A stretch of DNA of 64,000 bases, taken from contig JAUVXU010000005.1 of assembly GCA_030603445.1 (NCBI GenBank), forward strand, positions 40,926 through 104,925, in the 5' to 3' direction. The position numbers were made by a program, and so were the translations under genes. Numbering within the stretch: position 1 is the stretch's first letter; the number at the start of each line of letters is the position of its first letter. The DNA is from Methanomicrobia archaeon. Its GTDB lineage: Archaea; Methanobacteriota_B; Thermococci; Methanofastidiosales; NM3. Below are positions 2,566-64,000 of the stretch, in pieces. The notes under the pieces were generated by a model. The model was not told where the DNA came from and did not search any database. It saw nothing but the letters and a program-made list of their open reading frames with translations.

Positions 2566-3618
2566 ATGTCTGTTTATGAACTTATAGATAAGATATCAAA
2601 AATACAAGCTGAAGGCAAGCCCCTAATCAGATTGGATATAGGTCAGCCAGACCTTCCTGTTCCGTTGAAAGTGAAAGAAGCAACTAAACAAGCCATTGAT
2701 GATAATAAAACAGGATACACCCATTCCAAAGGAATACCCCAATTACGCGAAAAGATAGCGAAAAATCATAATGTGCCTGAGGAAAACGTGATAATAACAG
2801 CAGGAGGAAAGTTCCCAATATATGCAGCCTTAGAACAGGTAAAAGGAAATATCACTCTTGTTAGACCATGTTGGGGCGCCTACACTTTGATGCTCAAAAA
2901 GCTATCAAAAACCTATGATACGATAGAAACGACTTTTGAGTCAGGATTCCAAGCAGACCTGCACCAGATTAAAGACACAGAGATGGTTGTTATCAACTAT
3001 CCAAACAATCCAACAGGTGTTGGGATCTCACGAGAAAAACTAAAAGAGCTTGCTGATATGTCAAATGATGCGTCTTTTACAGTATTATCTGATGAAGTGT
3101 ACACAAAGATGACATTCAAAGATGCACCTTCTATCACAGAGTATGATTGTAACTATATCACTATTGGTTCATTCTCAAAGACATTTTCAATGACTGGTTA
3201 TAGGATAGGGTATGCCATAGGAGAACCTAATGTTATCAAGAAGATCCAGGAATTCCAGCAGCTTACCACAACAAGCCCGCCAGAATTTGCCCAATATGCC
3301 GCATTGTTTGCTATGGACATTATAGATGAAACATCGTCGTTTATCAGCCAATTTTACAAAAAACGAAGAGACGAGGCACTAGGCCTGCTCAATGATTCAG
3401 GATTTGAAGTAGTTCCGTCAGATGGAACATTCTATCTTTTCCCCCGTTTCAAGGGAAATGCTGATGAGTTTGCCATGAAACTTCTCGATATGGGCGTTTC
3501 GGTCCTTCCTGGGTCCCCATTCGGCCCATATGAGAATCATTTCAGGATATCGCTCGTATCAGAGGAGATGGAAAAAGCAGTTGGCAAGATGGAAAAAGTC
3601 AGGAAAATGTTAGAATAG
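2566..3618 (+). CDS. PLP-dependent aminotransferase, class I/II
   Basis: Fold-type I aminotransferase of 350 residues, slightly short for the family. Seen are the substrate-binding LDIGQPDLP at the N terminus, NYPNNPTG near residue 146, DEVY near 175, the PLP-lysine motif SFSKTFSMTGYRIGY (Lys near 206) and the carboxylate-binding arginine in FRISL near the end. Family members transfer the amino group between aspartate, aromatic or branched amino acids and 2-oxoglutarate; the exact pair cannot be read here. A GGTGAC ribosome-binding site precedes the ATG at normal spacing. It is distinct from HisC at 32476-33531. Confidence 0.85.
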   Translation: MSVYELIDKISKIQAEGKPLIRLDIGQPDLPVPLKVKEATKQAIDDNKTGYTHSKGIPQLREKIAKNHNVPEENVIITAGGKFPIYAALEQVKGNITLVRPCWGAYTLMLKKLSKTYDTIETTFESGFQADLHQIKDTEMVVINYPNNPTGVGISREKLKELADMSNDASFTVLSDEVYTKMTFKDAPSITEYDCNYITIGSFSKTFSMTGYRIGYAIGEPNVIKKIQEFQQLTTTSPPEFAQYAALFAMDIIDETSSFISQFYKKRRDEALGLLNDSGFEVVPSDGTFYLFPRFKGNADEFAMKLLDMGVSVLPGSPFGPYENHFRISLVSEEMEKAVGKMEKVRKMLE

Positions 3619-3651
3619 CAACTTTTTCTGCCCCTTCTGCTTTTCTTTCTT

Positions 3652-3692
3652 TAGATTTTTTACAAATCTATATTTACCCTATTTTTTTCTAC
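3652..3692. terminator. T-rich region with small hairpin between convergent genes
   Basis: Behind the aminotransferase stop lies AGATTT/AAATCT (arms 3653-3658 and 3664-3669), followed by a run of seven T at 3682-3688. Archaeal termination is driven mainly by U-runs, and the gene on the other strand ends at 3724, so this is a plausible terminator. Confidence 0.35.
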
Positions 3693-3723
3693 AATTGGGA
3701 AAAAAGGCATAAAATAGATCTTA

Positions 3724-4836
3724 CTAAAGGCTATCCAACAGATGCATCAAGATTATCCTACATTCTCGAACTTCATCTAACTTATGATCTAGTATTCCCT
3801 CTTTTATCAAGGATTCCTCAAGCACGTCAAATTCACGTTTCAGGGAAAAGTAATCCTCGGGAGAAGCATTTGCAAGTTTCAAGAAGAAGAGCTCAAGTTC
3901 TTTTTCTATGCTCTTGTTTTCAGTGATATGTGATGAAAATGATGTATGGTGTACTTCCTTAGAAGATGCATCCTCTTTAATAGATTTTTCCTCTATACGC
4001 GATGAAAATGCTTGTTCCACTAAAATGCCCTCGTCTGTTTTAGTCCGGAGATAGTAATACTTTCCCACAAGAATTATAGTGAAAATAGATAAGAGAATAT
4101 AAAATCCATTATGAATTCCCCAATGCAGTTCCATATATGGGCCAACATAATAACAACCCGTAGCAACAATTATCCAACCTATAATCTTGCCAAGATATGT
4201 CCATGACGAAGTTAAGGCTTTTCCAAACATCCTGGCCTTAGTCATGCTAACATATAACAAAATTGCAAAGATTATAACTGGAACATTTACCCCTATCCCA
4301 AAAATAATTGGGAAAACTATACCGCTTGATGATGAGATGGCAAGCGGCATTAAAAGACCAAAGAACAGCATCCCGGAATATGGACAAAAAGCAAATGCGA
4401 ATAACATTCCTAAAAGCAATGCGCCAATACCGCCCTTCGAAGAAAGCGATGCAGAAAACCTTTGTGTAAGGTTACTGCCAAATGATATGTCAAACTCAAA
4501 TAACCCGGCAAACCACAAACCTATAAATATCAGCACCGGCCCAATTACCATATTTCCATATGTCTGTGTATCGCGGGCAAAAGACCCCACTACCTGCCCC
4601 GCAGATATCATTATTGCGCCAATCACAAAATAAGTCACAATTCTTCCTATGCTAAATAGAAAACCTGCATAAAGTGCCTTGGATGGATTATTGGCATCAT
4701 GGGCAATATAACTTATTGCTGCTACGTTCGCAGCAAATGTACATGGACTAATAGCAGTGGCTAGCCCTATGAAGAATGATGATATAAACGGCATATTAGT
4801 ATTGTTTGCAATTTGTTCAATGAATTCTGGTATCAC
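3724..4836 (-). CDS. CcdA/DsbD-type membrane protein, ArsG-like
   Basis: Polytopic membrane protein of 370 residues. It has the cytochrome-c-biogenesis CcdA core with two cysteine motifs in membrane segments: ISPCTFAAN (Cys32) and FCPYSGM near residue 150. This pairing, and its place after ArsF-like genes, resembles ArsG, proposed as an efflux permease for aromatic arsenicals, rather than a classical CcdA. A cytoplasmic tail of about 110 residues (from roughly 260) is charged and helical and looks unlike the core. Its start overlaps the stop of the preceding gene by four bases (ATGA), so it is co-translated last in the cluster. Function in electron relay or in export both remain possible. Confidence 0.7.
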   Translation of the reverse strand: MIPEFIEQIANNTNMPFISSFFIGLATAISPCTFAANVAAISYIAHDANNPSKALYAGFLFSIGRIVTYFVIGAIMISAGQVVGSFARDTQTYGNMVIGPVLIFIGLWFAGLFEFDISFGSNLTQRFSASLSSKGGIGALLLGMLFAFAFCPYSGMLFFGLLMPLAISSSSGIVFPIIFGIGVNVPVIIFAILLYVSMTKARMFGKALTSSWTYLGKIIGWIIVATGCYYVGPYMELHWGIHNGFYILLSIFTIILVGKYYYLRTKTDEGILVEQAFSSRIEEKSIKEDASSKEVHHTSFSSHITENKSIEKELELFFLKLANASPEDYFSLKREFDVLEESLIKEGILDHKLDEVRECRIILMHLLDSL

Positions 4837-5546
4837 AGCAATTCCTCTAGGTAATTTTTGAAGTATTCTGTATAACTTTGTTTACTAGAAACACGCCTGA
4901 ACAGATTATACGTGGGATTATGAACTATTGTATCATCAGGGAATATTTCTAGTACAAATACTGATGAGCCATAAACGTTGAGCTCGTTGACTATAGTACT
5001 GTTTTTTGGATCCTCATAATTTAGGCTGTCATATGTTATTGTGCCATTGGAGAATTCGTCAGGAAAATAGGTGATAATAGTATAATATGCATATTCCCCT
5101 GCAAGTATACAAGAAGTGCACTGATGTGTTGCATGGAAATGATACACTTTTATAATTTTACTAGGTGTTGTTGTCGTTGGTGGAAGTGTTGTTGTGGGTG
5201 CTAGAGTAGTTGTAGGCACTGGGGTCGTGGTTGGTGGAGGTAATGTTGTAGGTGCGGGAGTTGTAGTTGGTGGAAGTGTGGTAGGTGCCAGAGTAGTTGT
5301 AGGTACTGGTGTTGTAGTTGGCGGGGGTAATGTAATATCTGGTTCACTTGAACCTGTGTTTGCAATTAAAGAGTATGATACAAAGGCGATTACAATTATC
5401 CCAAGGATTAAGAGGATGCCTCGTGAACTCACAGACCTATTATTTTTTAGAACATTTTCTTTATCAGTAGAACTAATCTTGTGGTGAGGAATAAAATCAT
5501 CCTCTTTGTAAATGCCCCTACCAGGAATTCCCTTATCACTATCCAT
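4833..5546 (-). CDS. Membrane-anchored thioredoxin-fold protein, ArsF-like, with Thr/Pro linker
   Basis: 237 residues. A cytoplasmic N terminus is followed by one membrane helix near 42-62, then a Thr/Pro-rich linker built from repeated units (about residues 70-130), then a globular domain beginning IIKVYHFHATHQCTSC. The Cys-x-x-Cys and the order of elements match ArsF-family proteins, described as subunits of nitrophenyl or aromatic-nitro arsenical reductases. The linker should hold the domain away from the outer face of the membrane and is typical of an O-glycosylated spacer. The gene abuts its paralogue at 5555-6022 and overlaps the CcdA/ArsG gene. Confidence 0.6.
   Translation of the reverse strand: MDSDKGIPGRGIYKEDDFIPHHKISSTDKENVLKNNRSVSSRGILLILGIIVIAFVSYSLIANTGSSEPDITLPPPTTTPVPTTTLAPTTLPPTTTPAPTTLPPPTTTPVPTTTLAPTTTLPPTTTTPSKIIKVYHFHATHQCTSCILAGEYAYYTIITYFPDEFSNGTITYDSLNYEDPKNSTIVNELNVYGSSVFVLEIFPDDTIVHNPTYNLFRRVSSKQSYTEYFKNYLEELL
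5176..5334. repeat. Tandem repeat encoding the Thr/Pro linker
   Basis: Two degenerate copies of a roughly 84-90 bp unit, the first starting at 5176 and the second at 5266, each beginning GTTGGTGGAAGTG on the plus strand. The second copy has a 6-9 base deletion in frame. It encodes the TTTPVPTTTLAPTTLPP-like spacer of the overlapping gene and is likely length-variable between strains. Confidence 0.75.
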
Positions 5547-56821: not shown

Positions 56822-58558
56822 TCATCTCCTGTTCCATAACGTATATATGAGTGTTAATAGAAGCCCGATGCCAAATACCATCATTACAGAATGAATGGCG
56901 GATGTAAATTCCATGCCAGCAACGAAGAGTGCGGCAGTAAGGAAACCTGCTATGCCTTCTCCCCCCATGAGCCCTGCAGAAACGAGCACTCCAGTATGCT
57001 CCTTATCCGGTCTTTTTTTTGCAACTATGTAGCGTATCAGCCCGCCTATTGCAAGGAGGATTCCAAATGTCATGCCAAGAAACATCCCGATGCCAAACGC
57101 CATTGCAGAGAATGGAAGCTTCTTTTTTACTATTTTTGTAAAAAGTTCGTAGACGAATGCTAGGGCAAATCCCCCATAAAACGCGATAGGATGTGCAAAT
57201 CCGAAGATGCTTCCTGCAACAAGCTGCGCCTGCGGTGCAGGCATCTGTGCAGTGAACAAGACATCAGAATATCCCTTAAGGACCACCTCAAGAACTATTG
57301 GAGCGGCAATACCTGCGATAATAACGCATATAAGGTCCACCTTCACGATGTCCTTTGGCCTTGTGCCTATTATCTTTGCTGACTTGTAATCATGCCCGAT
57401 ATCCCCAGATATTGCGGCAGCAACAGATACGAAAGTTACTACCATAAATGCTGCAAGGTAGCCAAGATCCATCCTGAGCGCTGAGTAGGTCCCTAAACAG
57501 ACAAGGCCTATTATTATCCCGAACTGCTCAAGAGGGTCTATGTTCGTCTCCCCGGTCATTCGTGCGGCAACTGTTGCCATTATCCAAACGCCAAGCACGC
57601 TTATTGCAGCTGCAAGCACGTGTACGCCTGCAATCATCATTACTATGAATGAAAGCACCGAGACAAATGGCGTTGCCTTTAAGTACCAAGGCCCGCTGAA
57701 GTTAAAAAGCGGGGCAAATATCTTTTTTACTTTGGGGCCCACGTAAGCTACAAAAAATCCTATGCCGCTTCCAAGCACGATTCCCATTCCCGCGTTTTGT
57801 ATAAATGATATGGCATCGCCGCCGACCCACTGGCCTGCGACCATGGCAGGTATTAACACCAGCCAGCCAATAACAGCTCCCCCAAACCATGAGTTGATGG
57901 CTATACGCGGCCCAAGGATATACCCGATGCCTATTGCAAGCGGCATTGCAGTAAGTGTTATGTAGATTCCGTAGACTGCCAGGCTTGTGAGTGTTACTCC
58001 TAGCGGGATGTAAATATCACGGGAAAGTGCAAAAAGGCCTGCGAAAAGCACCGTAAAGGCAATTAGCATCGCCCCCTTTCCTCCGCTCATCTGTGCTTTA
58101 AGTATCTCTGCCCCTGCAGCCCCCGAAGGGTAGGGCAGCTTTTCCTCATCAACAAACGTTCTTCTCACTGGAACGGACAGAAACACGCCAAGCACGCCTC
58201 CGCTAACACAGACTAATGCAAGAAGGTACGGGTCTATCATGTCTATCTCAACGCCCATATGGTCTCGCAAAAAAATTATTCCAGGAACTGTGAAAGCAAC
58301 GGCTGATGCCATAAGCCCGCCTATGGTCCCCCCTGCCTGGGCGACGTTCACCTCGTGTATTGAAACAGGGCTAAAGTGTGAAAATACCTTTAAGATGCCT
58401 GCTGATGCCATCACTGAGAAGATTATCGGCCATGGGAGCGCCCCAAGGCGCAGTGCTATGTAGGTCGAGGTGGAAAGCAGGAACAAAGTTAAGGCAACTG
58501 CCACAACTAGCGGCCTTATGCCAAATCCAGATCCTCCCTCCTCCTCAGGAATTATCAT
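56822..58558 (-). CDS. OPT-family oligopeptide transporter
   Basis: 578 residues with about 14-16 membrane helices. Family features: ALTLFLLSTSTYIALRLGALPWPII near the start, QAGGTIGGLMASAVAFTVPG, and LPYPSGAAGAEILKA. OPT carriers import oligopeptides or metal-chelator complexes driven by protons. The start overlaps the DUF2666-like gene by four bases. With the M29-like aminopeptidase it suggests a peptide-scavenging operon. Confidence 0.9.
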   Translation of the reverse strand: MIIPEEEGGSGFGIRPLVVAVALTLFLLSTSTYIALRLGALPWPIIFSVMASAGILKVFSHFSPVSIHEVNVAQAGGTIGGLMASAVAFTVPGIIFLRDHMGVEIDMIDPYLLALVCVSGGVLGVFLSVPVRRTFVDEEKLPYPSGAAGAEILKAQMSGGKGAMLIAFTVLFAGLFALSRDIYIPLGVTLTSLAVYGIYITLTAMPLAIGIGYILGPRIAINSWFGGAVIGWLVLIPAMVAGQWVGGDAISFIQNAGMGIVLGSGIGFFVAYVGPKVKKIFAPLFNFSGPWYLKATPFVSVLSFIVMMIAGVHVLAAAISVLGVWIMATVAARMTGETNIDPLEQFGIIIGLVCLGTYSALRMDLGYLAAFMVVTFVSVAAAISGDIGHDYKSAKIIGTRPKDIVKVDLICVIIAGIAAPIVLEVVLKGYSDVLFTAQMPAPQAQLVAGSIFGFAHPIAFYGGFALAFVYELFTKIVKKKLPFSAMAFGIGMFLGMTFGILLAIGGLIRYIVAKKRPDKEHTGVLVSAGLMGGEGIAGFLTAALFVAGMEFTSAIHSVMMVFGIGLLLTLIYTLWNRR

Positions 58559-58977
58559 CCTAATCGCCTGTTCTTGGCATTCATATACTTGTCAAGGGCC
58601 TTTATGCTAACCATGTTCATGCTTAGCTTTCTTAGGACAAGTTCTGAGAAAAGGCCTTTGTACACCTCAAGCTTGTTCTTATCAGTTGTGAACTCCTTAA
58701 GCATGCGTGTTGTCTTTGGCGACCTGAGGGCTTTTATGACGTCTGTTACTTCCTCCCCTTTAAGCTTCCCGGAAGGTACCATCTCGTCAACCTTTTCCTC
58801 CAGTGCCGATACGTTGAACTCTTCCTCAAGGAAAGGGTATATTTTATTATTTACTGTTTCACGAACTGAAAAGAGAAGGCGCGCTACGTCCAGATCATCT
58901 GTGTTCTCATCAACCTTCGTTTTTTTAACAGTTATCCATGACTTGTATTTTGCCGAAAAAGTGATATGATCGTCCAT
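58555..58977 (-). CDS. DUF2666-like archaeal protein
   Basis: 140 residues from the ATG at 58975-58977 (MDDHITFSAKYKSWITVKK); a GTG at 58986 is in frame. The opening and the helical, acidic/basic remainder recall an archaeal protein family of unknown function (DUF2666); by eye I cannot be certain. It is the first gene of the OPT-PanK-aminopeptidase operon. TATTTATTATATG (59004-59020 region) is a good TATA box giving a nearly leaderless start. Confidence 0.55.
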   Translation of the reverse strand: MDDHITFSAKYKSWITVKKTKVDENTDDLDVARLLFSVRETVNNKIYPFLEEEFNVSALEEKVDEMVPSGKLKGEEVTDVIKALRSPKTTRMLKEFTTDKNKLEVYKGLFSELVLRKLSMNMVSIKALDKYMNAKNRRLG

Positions 58978-59032
58978 AATAATCACAGGGGATTAACGAT
59001 AGCATATAATAAATACTTTTCTAATTAAATGC

Positions 59033-59080
59033 GGCTTTGGATATAAAGTACCTAATTGAACATAAAGTCAAATCAGTGAA
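59033..59080. repeat. Dispersed repeat, copy B (pair of 34373-34421)
   Basis: GGCTTTG-(3)-ATAAAGTACC-(6)-AACATAAAG-(7)-AGTGAA on the plus strand. It differs from copy A in the spacers and by one base in length. It lies at the edge between the OPT operon promoter and the AT-rich accessory island. Confidence 0.6.
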
Positions 59081-59156
59081 AAAATTACATAAACAAAAAA
59101 ACTTAGTAATTAAAAAGGAACTAAAAATTATGGTGAGTTAAAATTTTATTAAAGCT

Positions 59157-59465
59157 TTATTTATCTTTTATTATTCCTTCTCTTAAATATGTTTTTATAA
59201 GGTCTTCTTTACTAAATGGACAATCAATTAAACCTAAAACATTAGAGTTGGATATCTTTAGTTCTTTTGCTATTAATGATAAAAGTTTATTACCATACTC
59301 TGGATGGCTAAGGCTGATATAAGTGCGAATACTAGTTTTTTTACCATTATATATAAATGTATAAACAAAATGTTTTCTTCTTTTATTTTTTTTAGATATT
59401 TCAAAACCTTTTTCTCTTAAAGCTTTTTCAATATTTTTAGCTTTCCTTGTTGGCACGTTAATCAC
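59157..59465 (-). CDS. HicA-like toxin candidate
   Basis: 102 residues: RKAKNIEKALREKGFEI, then KRRKHFVYTFIYNGKKTSIRTYISLSHPEYG, then LLSLIAKELKIS. The helix-strand-strand-strand-helix order and the central His after basic residues fit the small dsRBD-like fold of HicA mRNA interferases, though the GSHH motif itself is not seen. Last gene of a three-gene unit; its start overlaps the preceding gene by four bases, as in toxin-antitoxin pairs. High AT and Lys/Ile/Asn content differ from flanking genes. Confidence 0.45.
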   Translation of the reverse strand: MINVPTRKAKNIEKALREKGFEISKKNKRRKHFVYTFIYNGKKTSIRTYISLSHPEYGNKLLSLIAKELKISNSNVLGLIDCPFSKEDLIKTYLREGIIKDK

Positions 59466-59941
59466 TGAAAATAAGATTTTATTTTATCTCTTAATTCTAT
59501 TGCATCTTTAGTAAATTCTATAGAATTGTCTTCGACATATTCTTCATAGAGCATCTCTAATTTTTCGTCTATGATTTCTATTGCTTTCTTAAAAGTATTT
59601 GCAAAAGCGTATAAACCTAATTTTTCATTATTAATTTCAATGTTATTATTTACATTATTAGAAATTAGTTCTAATTCAAGTGGTTTTTTCAATTCCAATA
59701 AATTTCCATTATACACGACTTCTTTTCGGGAGATATATGTCAATGTATATATGTTAGGAATATGTCCAGTTAGTGTTGTATACATGGCGGTATAAACAGA
59801 ACTAAATGTTATTTGTGCAACAGGAGTGTAATAACCAGAGCTAGATGTAGATGCCATATATCCATACGGCATATTTGCATAATCTCCTTTCTTAGAATCA
59901 TGCCGTGAACTATTCAAAATTAATTCATTTCCTCTAAACAT
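59462..59941 (-). CDS. Antitoxin candidate/unknown partner of the HicA-like gene
   Basis: 159 residues. The N-terminal half is Tyr/Thr/Ser-rich and beta-like (YTPVAQITFSSVYTAM), and the C-terminal half is helical with LGLYAFANTFKKAIEIIDEKLEMLYEEY, a pattern reminiscent of HicB-type partners. No DNA-binding motif is evident. Coupled by a four-base overlap to the toxin candidate. I do not recognise the family with certainty; the antitoxin reading is inferred from order and coupling. Confidence 0.4.
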   Translation of the reverse strand: MFRGNELILNSSRHDSKKGDYANMPYGYMASTSSSGYYTPVAQITFSSVYTAMYTTLTGHIPNIYTLTYISRKEVVYNGNLLELKKPLELELISNNVNNNIEINNEKLGLYAFANTFKKAIEIIDEKLEMLYEEYVEDNSIEFTKDAIELRDKIKSYFQ

Positions 59942-59946
59942 ATAAC

Positions 59947-60189
59947 CTACTCTTTTCTTAATAGCTCTTCTGGTACATTTGCAGTTACTATGTTCTCACT
60001 TTTTATAACATATATGGGTTCACCAGTTTCTTCTATATAATCGTTTTTTAATTTATAAACTGTTGCCAAAACTAATTTTACCTTTAATTCAGTCCCATCC
60101 TTTAGTTTATAAACATTCCATTCTTCTTTAGAGGATATGACATCTTCAACTTCAACTTCAACTTTTTTACCTCTGTAAGATATTATCAT
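59947..60189 (-). CDS. Small beta-rich protein of unknown function (toxin locus)
   Basis: 80 residues, beta-rich: MIISYRGKKVEVEVEDVIS, DGTELKVKLVLATVYKL, PIYVIKSENIVTANVP. Five bases before the antitoxin candidate, so first gene of the unit. AAGTGA before the ATG is a weak ribosome-binding site, and ATTATTTAAAG near 60220 a TATA-like box. No known function. Confidence 0.5.
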   Translation of the reverse strand: MIISYRGKKVEVEVEDVISSKEEWNVYKLKDGTELKVKLVLATVYKLKNDYIEETGEPIYVIKSENIVTANVPEELLRKE

Positions 60190-60311
60190 TTTATATCACT
60201 TTGATATTTTTGAATGTTAAACTTTAAATAATTATTCGTAAAGGGGGTTTTGTACAAAAAAGATTTTTAGAAAAAAATAAACCATTAAAAACTTGCTAAT
60301 AATAACTTGAG

Positions 60312-61574
60312 TTAAGTATTAACATCTTCGGATTGAATATGATTTATAAGTTCTGACAGCTGATTATAACCATATAATTTAATATTATTATTCTTAATCT
60401 CACTATCTAGTTTATCCGATTCATTAATAGCCGACTTGATTTCTTCTGAAGAATAATTTACAATTAAATTAGATTCATTGAATTTTACATTTTTTTCTTT
60501 TTCCCATTTTTTTATGTTTTTATTTATCTGGGCTATAGGGGCTAAAAACCTTGTAGCGATTTTGTCTTTTCTTTGAGAAGAAATTTTATCAAAACATTTT
60601 ATTTCCATATAGATTTGTTTGTCCCCTTTAGTAATAACAAAATCTGTTTCATTGGTATTTTCTGTATATAAATTGCACAAAAATGAAATTTCATTTTTGT
60701 TTAATAAATAAGCAATCATATAGGGGTAAAATCCCCCTTCTTTCAAAATTCTTTTAGATATATCTGGTAAAAAAGAATAGAATTTTATTTTTTTAGATTC
60801 ATTCCCACATTTAGGACAAAATATTACATCTGGAGTTTCCATATGGGGTAAAAAGATAGCTATAAAAGGAGGGTTGCTGTAAGTATGATATTTTACCATA
60901 TTACAAACGTATACTGTTAAAACAGGGTATGTTACACCCATTTTCTTTATTTTTTCAAGGGCATTATCATCTATGGTTCCTTTTTTATTATCTTCGATTA
61001 GTGATAGTACCAATAAGGGTATTAATGAAGCTATAGAATAAAAATCTGCGTTTTCTGGAAGAAATACTTTCATTTCCTTTTCCAGAATTTTTCTATTATT
61101 TTCATCAAATGATAAAGGTATATCATCCTCTTTAAACCTTTTTATAATATCCTTTAAAGATGCTTTTTGTATTTGTTCTATTTCTTTTTGGGGTAACTCA
61201 GCTATGGCTTTTATTCCAAATGCGGAAACTTGCATATAAAAATTAGTTAATTTCTCCACGTAGGGCAATACTTCAGTTTCCATTTTAGATTCGTAATGCG
61301 ATTTTATCATTTCTATTGCTTTTTTTTCAATTTCATCAGCTTGCACTAATATGGCCCTATTTTTGAATTTTTTAAGATAGAAATATTTTCTATGATTAGA
61401 AAAAAGTTTTATTAAATTGTTCTCTTTTAATATTTCGTTCATAAATATGTTCAATTCGTTTTTTGTTCTAACAATTTCAATAAAATTAGCAATGTCACTG
61501 TCTTCAATATTATTTTCAAATATCAATGTTTCTCCGTTTTCTTGATACAGAGTAACTTTATTTGATACCCGCAT
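60312..61574 (-). CDS. PD-(D/E)XK nuclease-like protein with zinc ribbon
   Basis: 420 residues, not a family I recognise. The N-terminal 250 residues are mostly helical with coiled-coil-like stretches. A zinc knuckle CPKCGNESKK lies near 255; a second pair is not obvious. The C-terminal part has TDFVITKGDKQIYMEIKCF, with the Asp and the Glu-x-Lys on following strands as in PD-(D/E)XK nucleases, then a basic helical region. The start overlaps the winged-helix gene by 17 bases, so they are one unit. Codon use and AT content set it apart from the core genome. A restriction- or abortive-infection-type effector is my inference. Confidence 0.5.
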   Translation of the reverse strand: MRVSNKVTLYQENGETLIFENNIEDSDIANFIEIVRTKNELNIFMNEILKENNLIKLFSNHRKYFYLKKFKNRAILVQADEIEKKAIEMIKSHYESKMETEVLPYVEKLTNFYMQVSAFGIKAIAELPQKEIEQIQKASLKDIIKRFKEDDIPLSFDENNRKILEKEMKVFLPENADFYSIASLIPLLVLSLIEDNKKGTIDDNALEKIKKMGVTYPVLTVYVCNMVKYHTYSNPPFIAIFLPHMETPDVIFCPKCGNESKKIKFYSFLPDISKRILKEGGFYPYMIAYLLNKNEISFLCNLYTENTNETDFVITKGDKQIYMEIKCFDKISSQRKDKIATRFLAPIAQINKNIKKWEKEKNVKFNESNLIVNYSSEEIKSAINESDKLDSEIKNNNIKLYGYNQLSELINHIQSEDVNT

Positions 61575-61980
61575 ATTCGTAAACTTCCCTTACAATAACT
61601 TCTGTAGGACTATGCTTATAATTTCGGACGAGTTCTTTTATCTTTAAATCTTCATTCTTTGATATTGAAAATAAATTGAGACTAATTTTTCCTTTTCTTG
61701 TCAAAGAATATTTATATAAAATACAATTATTGCCTTTTACTTTTTTTTCTTCAATTAGATTAAAATTCACAAGATTGTCTAAAACTTCTTGCATTTCTCG
61801 TGAATAAGGGCCATAATAATATTTTACAAATATAAATGGTGCTTCAATATTAAATTTGTATTTACCTAAATACATTAATTTTTGAAATCTTTTTCTGCCC
61901 GATATATCGCCATATTTTAGAAAATTTAATAACAGCAATTCTTTTTTTACATTATTAGCCATTATTCTAGCGTTAATCAT
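61558..61980 (-). CDS. YwgA/Panacea-like winged-helix protein
   Basis: 140 residues: a winged-helix-like domain with RKRFQKLMYLGKYKFN and FVKYYYGPYSREMQEVLDNLVNFNLI, which matches by eye the YwgA-type and Panacea (SocA) small domains that act as regulators or antitoxins. A second part has SLTRKGKISLNLF, the helix-turn-helix wing, and a helical end. GGGAG is a good ribosome-binding site before the ATG. It is the first gene of the pair with the nuclease-like protein. Confidence 0.5.
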   Translation of the reverse strand: MINARIMANNVKKELLLLNFLKYGDISGRKRFQKLMYLGKYKFNIEAPFIFVKYYYGPYSREMQEVLDNLVNFNLIEEKKVKGNNCILYKYSLTRKGKISLNLFSISKNEDLKIKELVRNYKHSPTEVIVREVYEYAGIK

Positions 61981-62220
61981 TATTGCTCCCTTATAATAAA
62001 ACTATAAAAATATTGTTATTGATTTAATAGCTTCAAAATCAAATTGCTATTTTTCTCTTTTACCCATTTTCCATCAATGAAAAGCTCTTTTTTATTTGTG
62101 GAAAGATTTGTGTGTGATTAGATTCTCATGAAAAAATAGCTTATTAAAATATGGAAGATTATGAACAATTGCCTTTTTTATTTTGTGCAATTTCCTGAGC
62201 GTATCGAGAGGACCTTTTGT
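61981..62220. other. AT-rich intergenic end of the accessory island
   Basis: About 240 bases with no supported gene. It contains the promoter of the winged-helix/nuclease pair (minus strand TATTTTTATAG near 62005) and the 3' side of mscS. No tRNA, integrase remnant or repeat B copy is visible here. Confidence 0.5.
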
Positions 62221-63321
62221 TTAAGTGTCCTCTTCGTTTATCTTGTTCCTGTACAAGTGTACTGTTTTAGTCGGGAATGCGAACTCTATACCTGCCTCGT
62301 TTAGGTCGTTGTAGATGTTATCTACCACCTTGCGCTCAACGCCCCACTTCGTGCCAAAGTCATCTACCCAAAATAATGCCCTAAATGTAAGGGAATAGTC
62401 TGCAAGATCGAGAAACTCTATGCAAGGCTCCGGGTCTTCTAAGATTAGTTCTACCTTCTTTACAGCCTTTAGTGCCACTGCCTTTGTCTTTTCGATATCA
62501 CTTCCGTACACCACTCCAAACGGCACCTGCCCCCGCTCCATTAGCTTTGGCTGCGCATAGTTGATTATCTTTGAGTCTGCCATCTTGCTGTTGGGGATTA
62601 TTATCACGTTATTGTCATAGGTGCGTATCCTTGTTGAGCGCAGTGTTATCTCGTGTATGGACCCTACCTCGCCGCTATCAAGCCTTACCTTATCACCGGT
62701 CTTGTAGGTCCTGTCGAGTATTAACATGATCCCAGATAAAAAGTCCCTTAAGCTATCCTGAACTGCAAGACCTATAACAAGACCAACTATCCCAAGACCT
62801 GCAAGGAAAGGGGCCACCTGAACTCCCCATATACCCAAGATCGCTATTAAGGTAGCGATGATGATAACGAGATTCACTATCTTCATAAATATGGGGAAAA
62901 TGGTGTCCCCGTATTTTGACCTTGTGCTTTTAAGCCATTTGCGCCCCCACCCATATATGAAGAGGTCAACGCTTTTTGTAAAGACATACGCAAAGAGCAC
63001 CACTAGAAGCGAGCTTAGAAGCTTGTTGAAGATCCCGATAAAATCGCCTTTTAGAGATAGTGACATTATTACGGTCTTTATCCCTATGATGAGAATAAAA
63101 TATATTATCGGTTTCTCTGTAGCCTCAACTAATAGGTCGTCTACCTTGGTCTTTGTCTTGGAACATATGCGCATCAGCAGATTTTTGTATATGAATGAGA
63201 TGACAAGCGCCAATACTAAAAATAATATAATAAGGACAAATGCAAACAGGTAATCGCTGTTAAAATATATGCGCAAGCTCTCAAGAGCATCGCTTATCGG
63301 CCTATCGATGTCAACTGCCAT
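62221..63321 (-). CDS. MscS-family mechanosensitive channel
   Basis: 366 residues: four to five membrane helices, then the pore helix with GLGIVGLVIGLAVQDSLRDFLSG and the cytoplasmic beta domain DRTYKTGDKVRLDSGEVGSIHEI...VIIPNSKMADSKIINY, typical of MscS. The C-terminal alpha/beta domain follows. It releases solutes on osmotic downshock. Length is between MscS and the longer MscM forms. It appears to be the first core gene beyond the island. Confidence 0.92.
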   Translation of the reverse strand: MAVDIDRPISDALESLRIYFNSDYLFAFVLIILFLVLALVISFIYKNLLMRICSKTKTKVDDLLVEATEKPIIYFILIIGIKTVIMSLSLKGDFIGIFNKLLSSLLVVLFAYVFTKSVDLFIYGWGRKWLKSTRSKYGDTIFPIFMKIVNLVIIIATLIAILGIWGVQVAPFLAGLGIVGLVIGLAVQDSLRDFLSGIMLILDRTYKTGDKVRLDSGEVGSIHEITLRSTRIRTYDNNVIIIPNSKMADSKIINYAQPKLMERGQVPFGVVYGSDIEKTKAVALKAVKKVELILEDPEPCIEFLDLADYSLTFRALFWVDDFGTKWGVERKVVDNIYNDLNEAGIEFAFPTKTVHLYRNKINEEDT

Positions 63322-63367
63322 ATTTATAGGATAATGCGCCCCTTTATTAATTTTTATGTTAGTTTGC

Positions 63368-64000
63368 CTAGAAAAGTAGGATTATATAATAAAGTGCGAC
63401 AGAGACGAGTGCGCCTGCAACTGTGCAAAAGAAGTTTGTGTGATTGTTTGTGAACCATTCTCTGCTAGTTTCTAGCGTTGCCCCCAGATACGAATCCACA
63501 GAAGCGCCGAAAACCCCTCCAACAAGTGTCAATGCAATGATCTCCTGGCCTGTGAGCTCTGCTGCCCCAAAGCCGCTTGCCCATGCGATTACGCCTATTA
63601 CAAGGCTGATGCCAACTTCTGCGACCTTGCCAAGTATCGTTATTCCCCCGTCCGTTCCTGCTGGTACCTTCTTGAAGTTTGTTATTAGCCAAGGATCCTT
63701 TCTGGAAAGTCGCCCTATCTCGCCTCCAACAGTATCTGATGTTGCGGCCGCAGCTGCTGCAAGGTAGCCGACAATAAAGGCCCCTCCACCAAATATAAAC
63801 TCCAAAACTATGAAAAACATTGCAACTATCCCATTTCCAAGGACGTTCTTGTAACCTCTGGCTCCGCCGTGTGCTTCTGCAATTCCCTTCTGCTTCTTCT
63901 TATCATAGTGGTACTTTGTCGCTGCACCTGAGAATATGAAGAACGCCAATATGACAGCAAATGCGCCCCAGCCTCCAAAAAATATTATTCCCATGCCGAC
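63368..64000 (-). CDS. DUF92/TMEM19-family membrane protein (N terminus beyond the window)
   Basis: About 210 residues visible. The pieces GAATKYHYDKKKQKGIAEAHGGARGYKNVLGNG, AAAAAATSDTVGGEIGRLS and VGGVFGASVDSYLGATLE are diagnostic for DUF92. Related eukaryotic and bacterial members are phytyl-phosphate (VTE6-like) kinases, so a polyprenyl-phosphate kinase role is conceivable. An ATG occurs at 63994, but the frame runs to the window edge and family members normally have another N-terminal membrane helix, so the gene is probably cut by the edge. Confidence 0.82.
   Translation of the reverse strand, partial: VGMGIIFFGGWGAFAVILAFFIFSGAATKYHYDKKKQKGIAEAHGGARGYKNVLGNGIVAMFFIVLEFIFGGGAFIVGYLAAAAAATSDTVGGEIGRLSRKDPWLITNFKKVPAGTDGGITILGKVAEVGISLVIGVIAWASGFGAAELTGQEIIALTLVGGVFGASVDSYLGATLETSREWFTNNHTNFFCTVAGALVSVALYYIILLF

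What the first reader, a model, noticed from the sequence alone, without database searches (positions are those of the whole stretch)
60312..61980. Two-gene unit pairing a YwgA/Panacea-like winged helix with a zinc-ribbon PD-(D/E)XK nuclease candidate
The genes overlap by 17 bases, share strongly AT-rich composition, and sit in an accessory island. One member looks like a regulator/antitoxin domain and the other has a D...E-x-K nuclease core, a CPKCG knuckle and a long helical N-terminal part. That combination is typical of toxin-antitoxin or abortive-infection systems, but I do not recognise this exact pairing as a named defense system.
Basis: partly seen in the sequence, partly recalled or inferred. 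Interest (0 to 1): 0.7.

Follow-up and report, generated by a model that had tools for sequence, protein, structure and literature searches.

The report
Archaeal helix–nuclease pair, likely toxin–antitoxin
Two overlapping genes in an archaeal genome, a small winged-helix protein and a nuclease-like protein, also occur as the same coupled pair in a distant archaeon, so they are probably an uncharacterised toxin–antitoxin or virus-defence unit; the activity is predicted, not shown.

Summary
In detail: ORFs at 61558-61980 (WH, 140 aa) and 60312-61574 (nuclease, 420 aa), both minus strand, overlap by 17 nt in a 26% GC island (flanks 44-48%). The island is absent from the same site in sister genomes. 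One full-length relative of the nuclease was found among the roughly 1,000 archaeal genomes searched, in another phylum (36% identity). It lies directly behind a relative of the WH (41% identity), with the same order and a 14-nt overlap, so the pairing is real and old. The WH belongs to the YwgA/SocA-Panacea/DarG-C superfamily. Related archaeal WH genes sit beside many other partners: PIN nucleases, other nuclease-like proteins, HD hydrolases, SDH proteases. The nuclease C-terminus carries a conserved D311...E324-x-K326. Sub-threshold NERD and SfsA matches, a significant profile match to a DUF4143 nuclease domain, and a partial model whose best structural matches are mostly PD-(D/E)XK nucleases together support that fold. 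The 'zinc ribbon' is one CPxC knuckle plus conserved C/H. Most likely mechanism: type II toxin-antitoxin/abortive-infection unit, with the WH neutralising a toxic nuclease; inferred, not shown. I found no named system with this pairing. New variant of a known kind.

The parts
61558..61980 (-). WH gene, YwgA/SocA-Panacea/DarG-C-like winged-helix protein, 140 aa; proposed antitoxin/regulator, first gene of the pair; GPY motif at 61804-61812; GGGAG Shine-Dalgarno-like sequence and a TATA-like stretch upstream
60312..61574 (-). Nuclease gene, 420 aa; proposed toxin/effector, starts inside the end of the WH gene (17-nt overlap)
60315..60674 (-). C-terminal PD-(D/E)XK-like domain (about residues 301-420): D311 at 60642-60644, E324 at 60603-60605, K326 at 60597-60599
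60807..60905 (-). Putative metal site: C224, H230, H244, C253, C256 (YxC...H...LPH...CPxC), all invariant between the two homologues; only one true CxxC knuckle
60945..61574 (-). N-terminal half of the nuclease (about residues 1-210), no recognised domain, conserved full length in G181
58987..62220 (.). AT-rich accessory island between DUF2666 and MscS genes; the equivalent position in sister genomes is a short intergenic gap

Best explanation
A two-gene type II toxin-antitoxin / abortive-infection unit carried on a horizontally acquired island. The upstream YwgA/Panacea-like winged-helix protein is co-translated with, binds and neutralises a PD-(D/E)XK nuclease whose N-terminal half and Cys/His metal site provide binding or targeting. 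When the WH is lost, degraded or titrated (for instance during infection by a virus), the nuclease cuts nucleic acid through the D311/E324/K326 site and stops growth or infection. Shown computationally: gene pair, overlap, conservation of pair and motifs, WH superfamily, exchange of partners by related WHs, sporadic distribution. Supported but not proven: PD-(D/E)XK fold. Inferred only: nuclease activity, toxicity, neutralisation, trigger, DNA versus RNA target.
For: Pair conserved across phyla in the same order with a conserved overlap and a GGAGG/GGGAAG-type ribosome-binding sequence inside the WH end. WH matches DarG antitoxin C-terminus (PADLOC 9.7e-7, NCBIfam 1.6e-4) and PADLOC candidate defence protein PDC-M19A (1.4e-8; G181 copy 2.1e-12); four relatives match SocA_Panacea (best 6e-10). 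Related archaeal WHs, including one in the same genome, sit directly before or beside PIN nucleases, other D...ExK proteins, HD hydrolases and SDH proteases, the partner-swapping pattern described for Panacea antitoxins (PMC8832971, PMC10440598). Nuclease: NERD 0.0026, SfsA 0.042 on the G181 copy, profile match to a DUF4143 nuclease domain at 1.4e-5 per genome in 575 genomes, partial AF2 model with Card1 (Z 6.6), CdiA-CT, Avs4, AF1548, XisH, EndoMS, Shedu and Can2 among the best matches. Sporadic, AT-rich, absent from sister genomes. The island also holds a HicA-like pair; the G181 copy is beside a DNA methyltransferase.
Against: No activity data. The window WH itself does not reach Pfam PF13274 (no hit at E 1) and its closest matches (Priestia YwgA, G362) pair with HD hydrolases, a unit not known to be toxin-antitoxin. 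The nuclease is large (420 aa) for a classic type II toxin. The structural model is weak (mean pLDDT 52, well ordered only about residues 97-193 of the 209 modelled) and all Z are below 8. Only two copies of the pair are known.
Confidence: 0.6

Rival explanations
1. A restriction-like or modification-dependent two-subunit nuclease: the WH is a DNA-binding/specificity or controller subunit and the nuclease cuts foreign DNA, rather than being a toxin held by an antitoxin.
For: In G181 the pair lies about 570 nt from a divergent N6/N4 DNA methyltransferase with an unknown 187-aa partner; a weak Specificity_I match of the G181 WH (0.0055); PD-(D/E)XK folds are typical of restriction enzymes (family knowledge).
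Against: No methyltransferase in the G000 island, so the methyltransferase is not a constant partner; related WHs pair with PIN, HD and protease genes that are not restriction enzymes.
Confidence: 0.2
2. A housekeeping or regulatory pair: WH is a transcriptional regulator of an auxiliary nuclease with a DNA or RNA repair role, as YwgA with its HD hydrolase may be.
For: Closest single-sequence relatives of the WH are YwgA proteins beside HD hydrolases in Priestia, G362 and G159; AF1548, EndoMS and a Pyrococcus repair endonuclease are among the structural neighbours.
Against: Absent from all other genomes of genus, family, order and phylum searched, AT-rich and island-borne: not a core gene.
Confidence: 0.12
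3. The large protein is not a nuclease; the D...ExK pattern is coincidental in another fold (for example RPB5-like or ACC-like), and the unit acts through binding.
For: Every single Pfam hit is sub-threshold; acetyl-CoA carboxylase and ASFV RPB5 also appear in the structural list.
Against: Motif invariant across 36% identity, significant profile match to the DUF4143 nuclease domain, and top structural matches are dominated by PD-(D/E)XK enzymes, Card1 aligned from its residue D294 onto the motif D.
Confidence: 0.08

Closest known systems
PanAT (Panacea/DUF4065 antitoxin with swapped toxins; PMC8832971, PMC10440598)
   Same: small WH-type antitoxin-like gene first, overlapping partner, GP(V/Y) motif, partner swapping among relatives, sporadic distribution
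YwgA with HD hydrolase (YwfO-type)
   Same: WH closest by single sequence (Priestia YwgA 5.4e-11); two adjacent genes
   Different: partner is an HD hydrolase, usually encoded before the WH; no nuclease; function not established
DarTG, DarG C-terminal domain
   Same: WH region matches DarG residues about 180-290
   Different: no macrodomain (ADP-ribosyl glycohydrolase) and no DarT ADP-ribosyltransferase partner
Thermococcales-class WH + 256-aa D...ExK protein (L056, L086)
   Same: WH followed by overlapping (31-nt) predicted PD-(D/E)XK gene
   Different: nuclease not alignable with ours by hhalign; no Cys/His site; no curated family
Card1/Can2/Cap4 PD-(D/E)XK defence nucleases
   Same: predicted nuclease core geometry
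   Different: no CARF/SAVED sensor identified here; activation expected by partner loss rather than cyclic nucleotide

Membership tests
PanAT / Panacea (PF13274) toxin-antitoxin | WH protein reaches the PF13274 curated cut-off | tested here: not met
   no hit at E 1 for the window WH; G181 WH 15.6 bits against cut-off 25.7
PanAT / Panacea (PF13274) toxin-antitoxin | superfamily relationship through intermediates | tested here: met
   homologous relatives match SocA_Panacea up to 6e-10
PanAT / Panacea (PF13274) toxin-antitoxin | conserved two-gene architecture, gap under 100 nt, in more than one lineage | tested here: met
   same order and overlap in G000 and G181
PanAT / Panacea (PF13274) toxin-antitoxin | toxicity and neutralisation | not testable with these tools
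   needs an expression assay
PD-(D/E)XK nuclease superfamily | D...(D/E)-x-K active-site motif conserved in homologues | tested here: met
   D311, E324, K326 invariant
PD-(D/E)XK nuclease superfamily | sequence match to a superfamily profile | tested here: met
   our profile hits a DUF4143 nuclease domain at 1.4e-5; NERD and SfsA only sub-threshold. That DUF4143, NERD and SfsA belong to the superfamily is from general knowledge
PD-(D/E)XK nuclease superfamily | fold | tested here: inconclusive
   partial model, best Z 6.6 to Card1, top rows dominated by the superfamily but Z under 8
Zinc ribbon | two CxxC-type knuckles | tested here: not met
   one CPxC (C253, C256) plus conserved C224, H230, H244; Zn_ribbon_3 match covers 12 residues, E 0.037
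DarTG | DarG macrodomain and DarT partner | tested here: not met
   WH is 140 aa and matches only the DarG C-terminal region; no DarT or macrodomain hit in the partner
PADLOC PDC-M19 candidate system | M19A protein over its length and its partner | tested here: inconclusive
   WH matches profile positions 8-115 of 294 (1.4e-8); nuclease matches no PDC-M19 model
Type II restriction-modification | cognate methyltransferase next to the nuclease | tested here: inconclusive
   present beside the G181 pair, absent from the G000 island

The most novel reading that the evidence does not exclude
A previously unnamed archaeal antiviral unit in which a YwgA-clade winged-helix protein restrains a new family of PD-(D/E)XK nuclease with an unusual N-terminal targeting half and a C/H/H/CxxC metal site, one of many effectors swapped onto YwgA-type proteins across archaea, so that YwgA proteins in general are guards of dormant effectors.
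Probability: 0.35. Interest if true: 0.65.

Novelty: new variant of a known kind. Interest (0 to 1): 0.5.

Why it matters
It adds a nuclease effector, not found in the Panacea papers as far as I could read them, to the partner list of the YwgA/Panacea winged-helix superfamily. It shows that this partner swapping is widespread in archaea (PIN, D...ExK, HD and SDH-protease partners, one more in the same genome), where experimentally tested toxin-antitoxin and abortive-infection systems are few. A simple two-plasmid toxicity test would decide it.

Tried and rejected
Close-relative searches with the 420-aa protein in viral contigs, phages, plasmids and genome contigs gave nothing; two of these collection scans used poorly placed peptide patterns, so absence there is weak evidence. 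AF2 of the full nuclease alone was useless (pLDDT 34). E 0.01-1 single-protein hits in relatives (L002-L011, L061-L063) were unrelated proteins or fragments where looked at. USP, T4 Rnl2 and Spx matches of the nuclease were rejected as chance, because they miss the conserved core and have no support in the homologue. Relation of our nuclease to the Thermococcales-class 256-aa protein was not supported by hhalign. Direct repeats flanking the island or a tRNA target were not found. Literature search for YwgA gave nothing relevant. The A3-A1 profile comparison is circular and is not used.

Full report
Observation. The window holds two overlapping minus-strand ORFs exactly as reported: WH 61558-61980 (140 aa) and nuclease 60312-61574 (420 aa), overlapping by 17 nt with the WH first. 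The window is G000 contig C27, 40926-104925, and ends at the contig end. The host is an archaeon: the second pair-bearing genome (G181) is listed as 'same domain' and carries an archaeal RNase P 12 kb from the pair; the host's name was not available. The pair sits in a 3.2-kb, 26% GC island between DUF2666 and MscS/DUF92 genes, whose neighbours have 42-49% GC and GC3 near 0.5 against 0.2 in the island. In sister genomes G001 and G004 the DUF2666 gene faces DUF92-MscS across a short gap (about 260 bp in G001) with no such genes; in G000 the DUF92-MscS block is inverted and the island lies at the junction.

Is the pairing real? The nuclease has no relative in the other 114 genomes of the phylum but one full-length relative among 396 archaeal genomes: G181, from another phylum (E 7.5e-65, 35% identity). 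Immediately upstream, overlapping by 14 nt and in the same order, G181 encodes a relative of the WH (E 1.6e-30). Both genes are conserved over their length (36% and 41%). In both genomes the nuclease start lies in the same place inside the last WH codons, preceded by a purine-rich ribosome-binding-like sequence (GGGAAG, GGAGG). Further searches of 301, 389, 156, 29 and 1 genomes of other archaeal phyla found no third full-length copy. So every nuclease found has the WH next to it (2 of 2), and the two best WH matches in 375 genomes (7.8e-75 or better, with a profile built from these two; the next is 1.1e-21) are the two that have the nuclease. The refutation test 'homologues never occur together' fails.

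The WH. It matches DarG's C-terminal region (PADLOC 9.7e-7, NCBIfam 1.6e-4), the PADLOC candidate PDC-M19A (1.4e-8) and phrog_14939 (1.3e-7), and by single sequence a Priestia YwgA-type protein (5.4e-11) and haloarchaeal proteins annotated SocA-like. Four of 14 aligned relatives match Pfam SocA_Panacea (6e-10), though the window protein itself does not. It keeps a GPY at the place of the GPV signature that is needed for neutralisation in Panacea (PMC8832971). Related WHs in archaea sit beside PIN nucleases (L013, L017, L094, and PIN-like L018, L021, L082, L087 and L059 in this same genome), D...ExK proteins (L056/L086, L095, and a Haloarcula plasmid, L025), HD hydrolases (L022, L026, L091, L100) and SDH-type proteases (L090, L103). 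Some assignments of partners are by eye on motifs and not by a curated model: L025, L056, L086, L095, L018, L021, L059, L082, L087, L090 and the HD of L022 and L100 had no Pfam hit or were not scanned. Not every hit has a toxin-like neighbour: several (for example L073, L075, L079) lie beside ordinary genes.

The nuclease. Between the two copies D311, E324 and K326 are invariant in NE(T/V)DF...(Y)xEIKC, followed by a conserved QIxKNIxxWEK helix. On the G181 copy NERD (0.0026) and SfsA (0.042), both nuclease-superfamily domains, are among the few weak Pfam hits. A profile of the two matched the DUF4143 nuclease domain of an AAA_14-DUF4143 protein in G370 at 1.4e-5 per genome (575 genomes scanned, about 0.008 expected). 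AF2 on residues 212-420 with two sequences gave mean pLDDT 52, about 60-90 over the motif region and the helix after it, and a strand-strand-helix-strand order. VIA-align ranked Card1 first (Z 6.6, 78 residues, 2.9 A), the alignment starting with Card1 residue D294 on model residue 100, which is D311; then CdiA-CT, Avs4, AF1548, XisH, EndoMS, Cdn1, Shedu and Can2. All Z are under 8, so this is support, not proof. The upstream C224/H230/H244/C253/C256 set is invariant and could bind zinc, but it is not a standard ribbon. The N-terminal 210 residues have no assigned fold.

Mechanism. The best reading is a toxin-antitoxin/abortive-infection unit: WH neutralises a nuclease. This rests on the family precedent of Panacea and DarG, the partner swapping, the island context and the overlap. 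A restriction-like reading has some support from the methyltransferase beside the G181 pair but none from G000. The same island carries a HicA-like gene with a 159-aa partner, and the same two genes lie beside another WH-PIN-like pair in G086 (L018), which strengthens the defence/toxin-antitoxin context.

Novelty.

Noticed in passing
window 59157-59465 and 59462-59941 (-): HicA-like 102-aa gene overlapping a 159-aa partner; homologous pair (93 and 128 aa; the 93-aa protein matches PF07927 HicA at 2.9e-8) lies directly beside a WH-PIN-like pair in G086 (L018 1896-2177 and 2174-2560), so both islands combine a HicA-like pair with a WH-nuclease pair.
   Followed up: partly
L059 (G000:C32:36000-46000) 2569-4986: Second WH of the same superfamily in the same genome, overlapping by 4 nt a 198-aa PIN-like gene (PDC-S70, 2e-6) followed by an unknown 420-aa gene.
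   Followed up: partly
L056 5022-6162 and L086 1495-2755: WH plus overlapping 256-aa protein with a D...AELK nuclease-like motif in two genomes of the same class; no Pfam hit, and no PADLOC hit for the L056 copy. The L056 WH seems frameshifted at its start.
   Followed up: partly
L103 3320-4802 and L090 1435-2481: WH genes directly followed by SDH/ClpP-like serine protease genes in two archaea (L103 by Pfam, L090 by likeness), a possible protease-effector variant of the same module.
   Followed up: no
L064 3513-5107: Divergent N6/N4 DNA methyltransferase with an unknown 187-aa partner next to the G181 copy of the pair; possible new restriction-modification set.
   Followed up: no
window 58555-63994: DUF92-MscS block is inverted relative to sister genomes G001 and G004, and the island lies exactly at the inversion junction.
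   Followed up: partly
window 59947-60189 (-): 80-aa ORF of unknown function between the two pairs of the island; no family hit.
   Followed up: no
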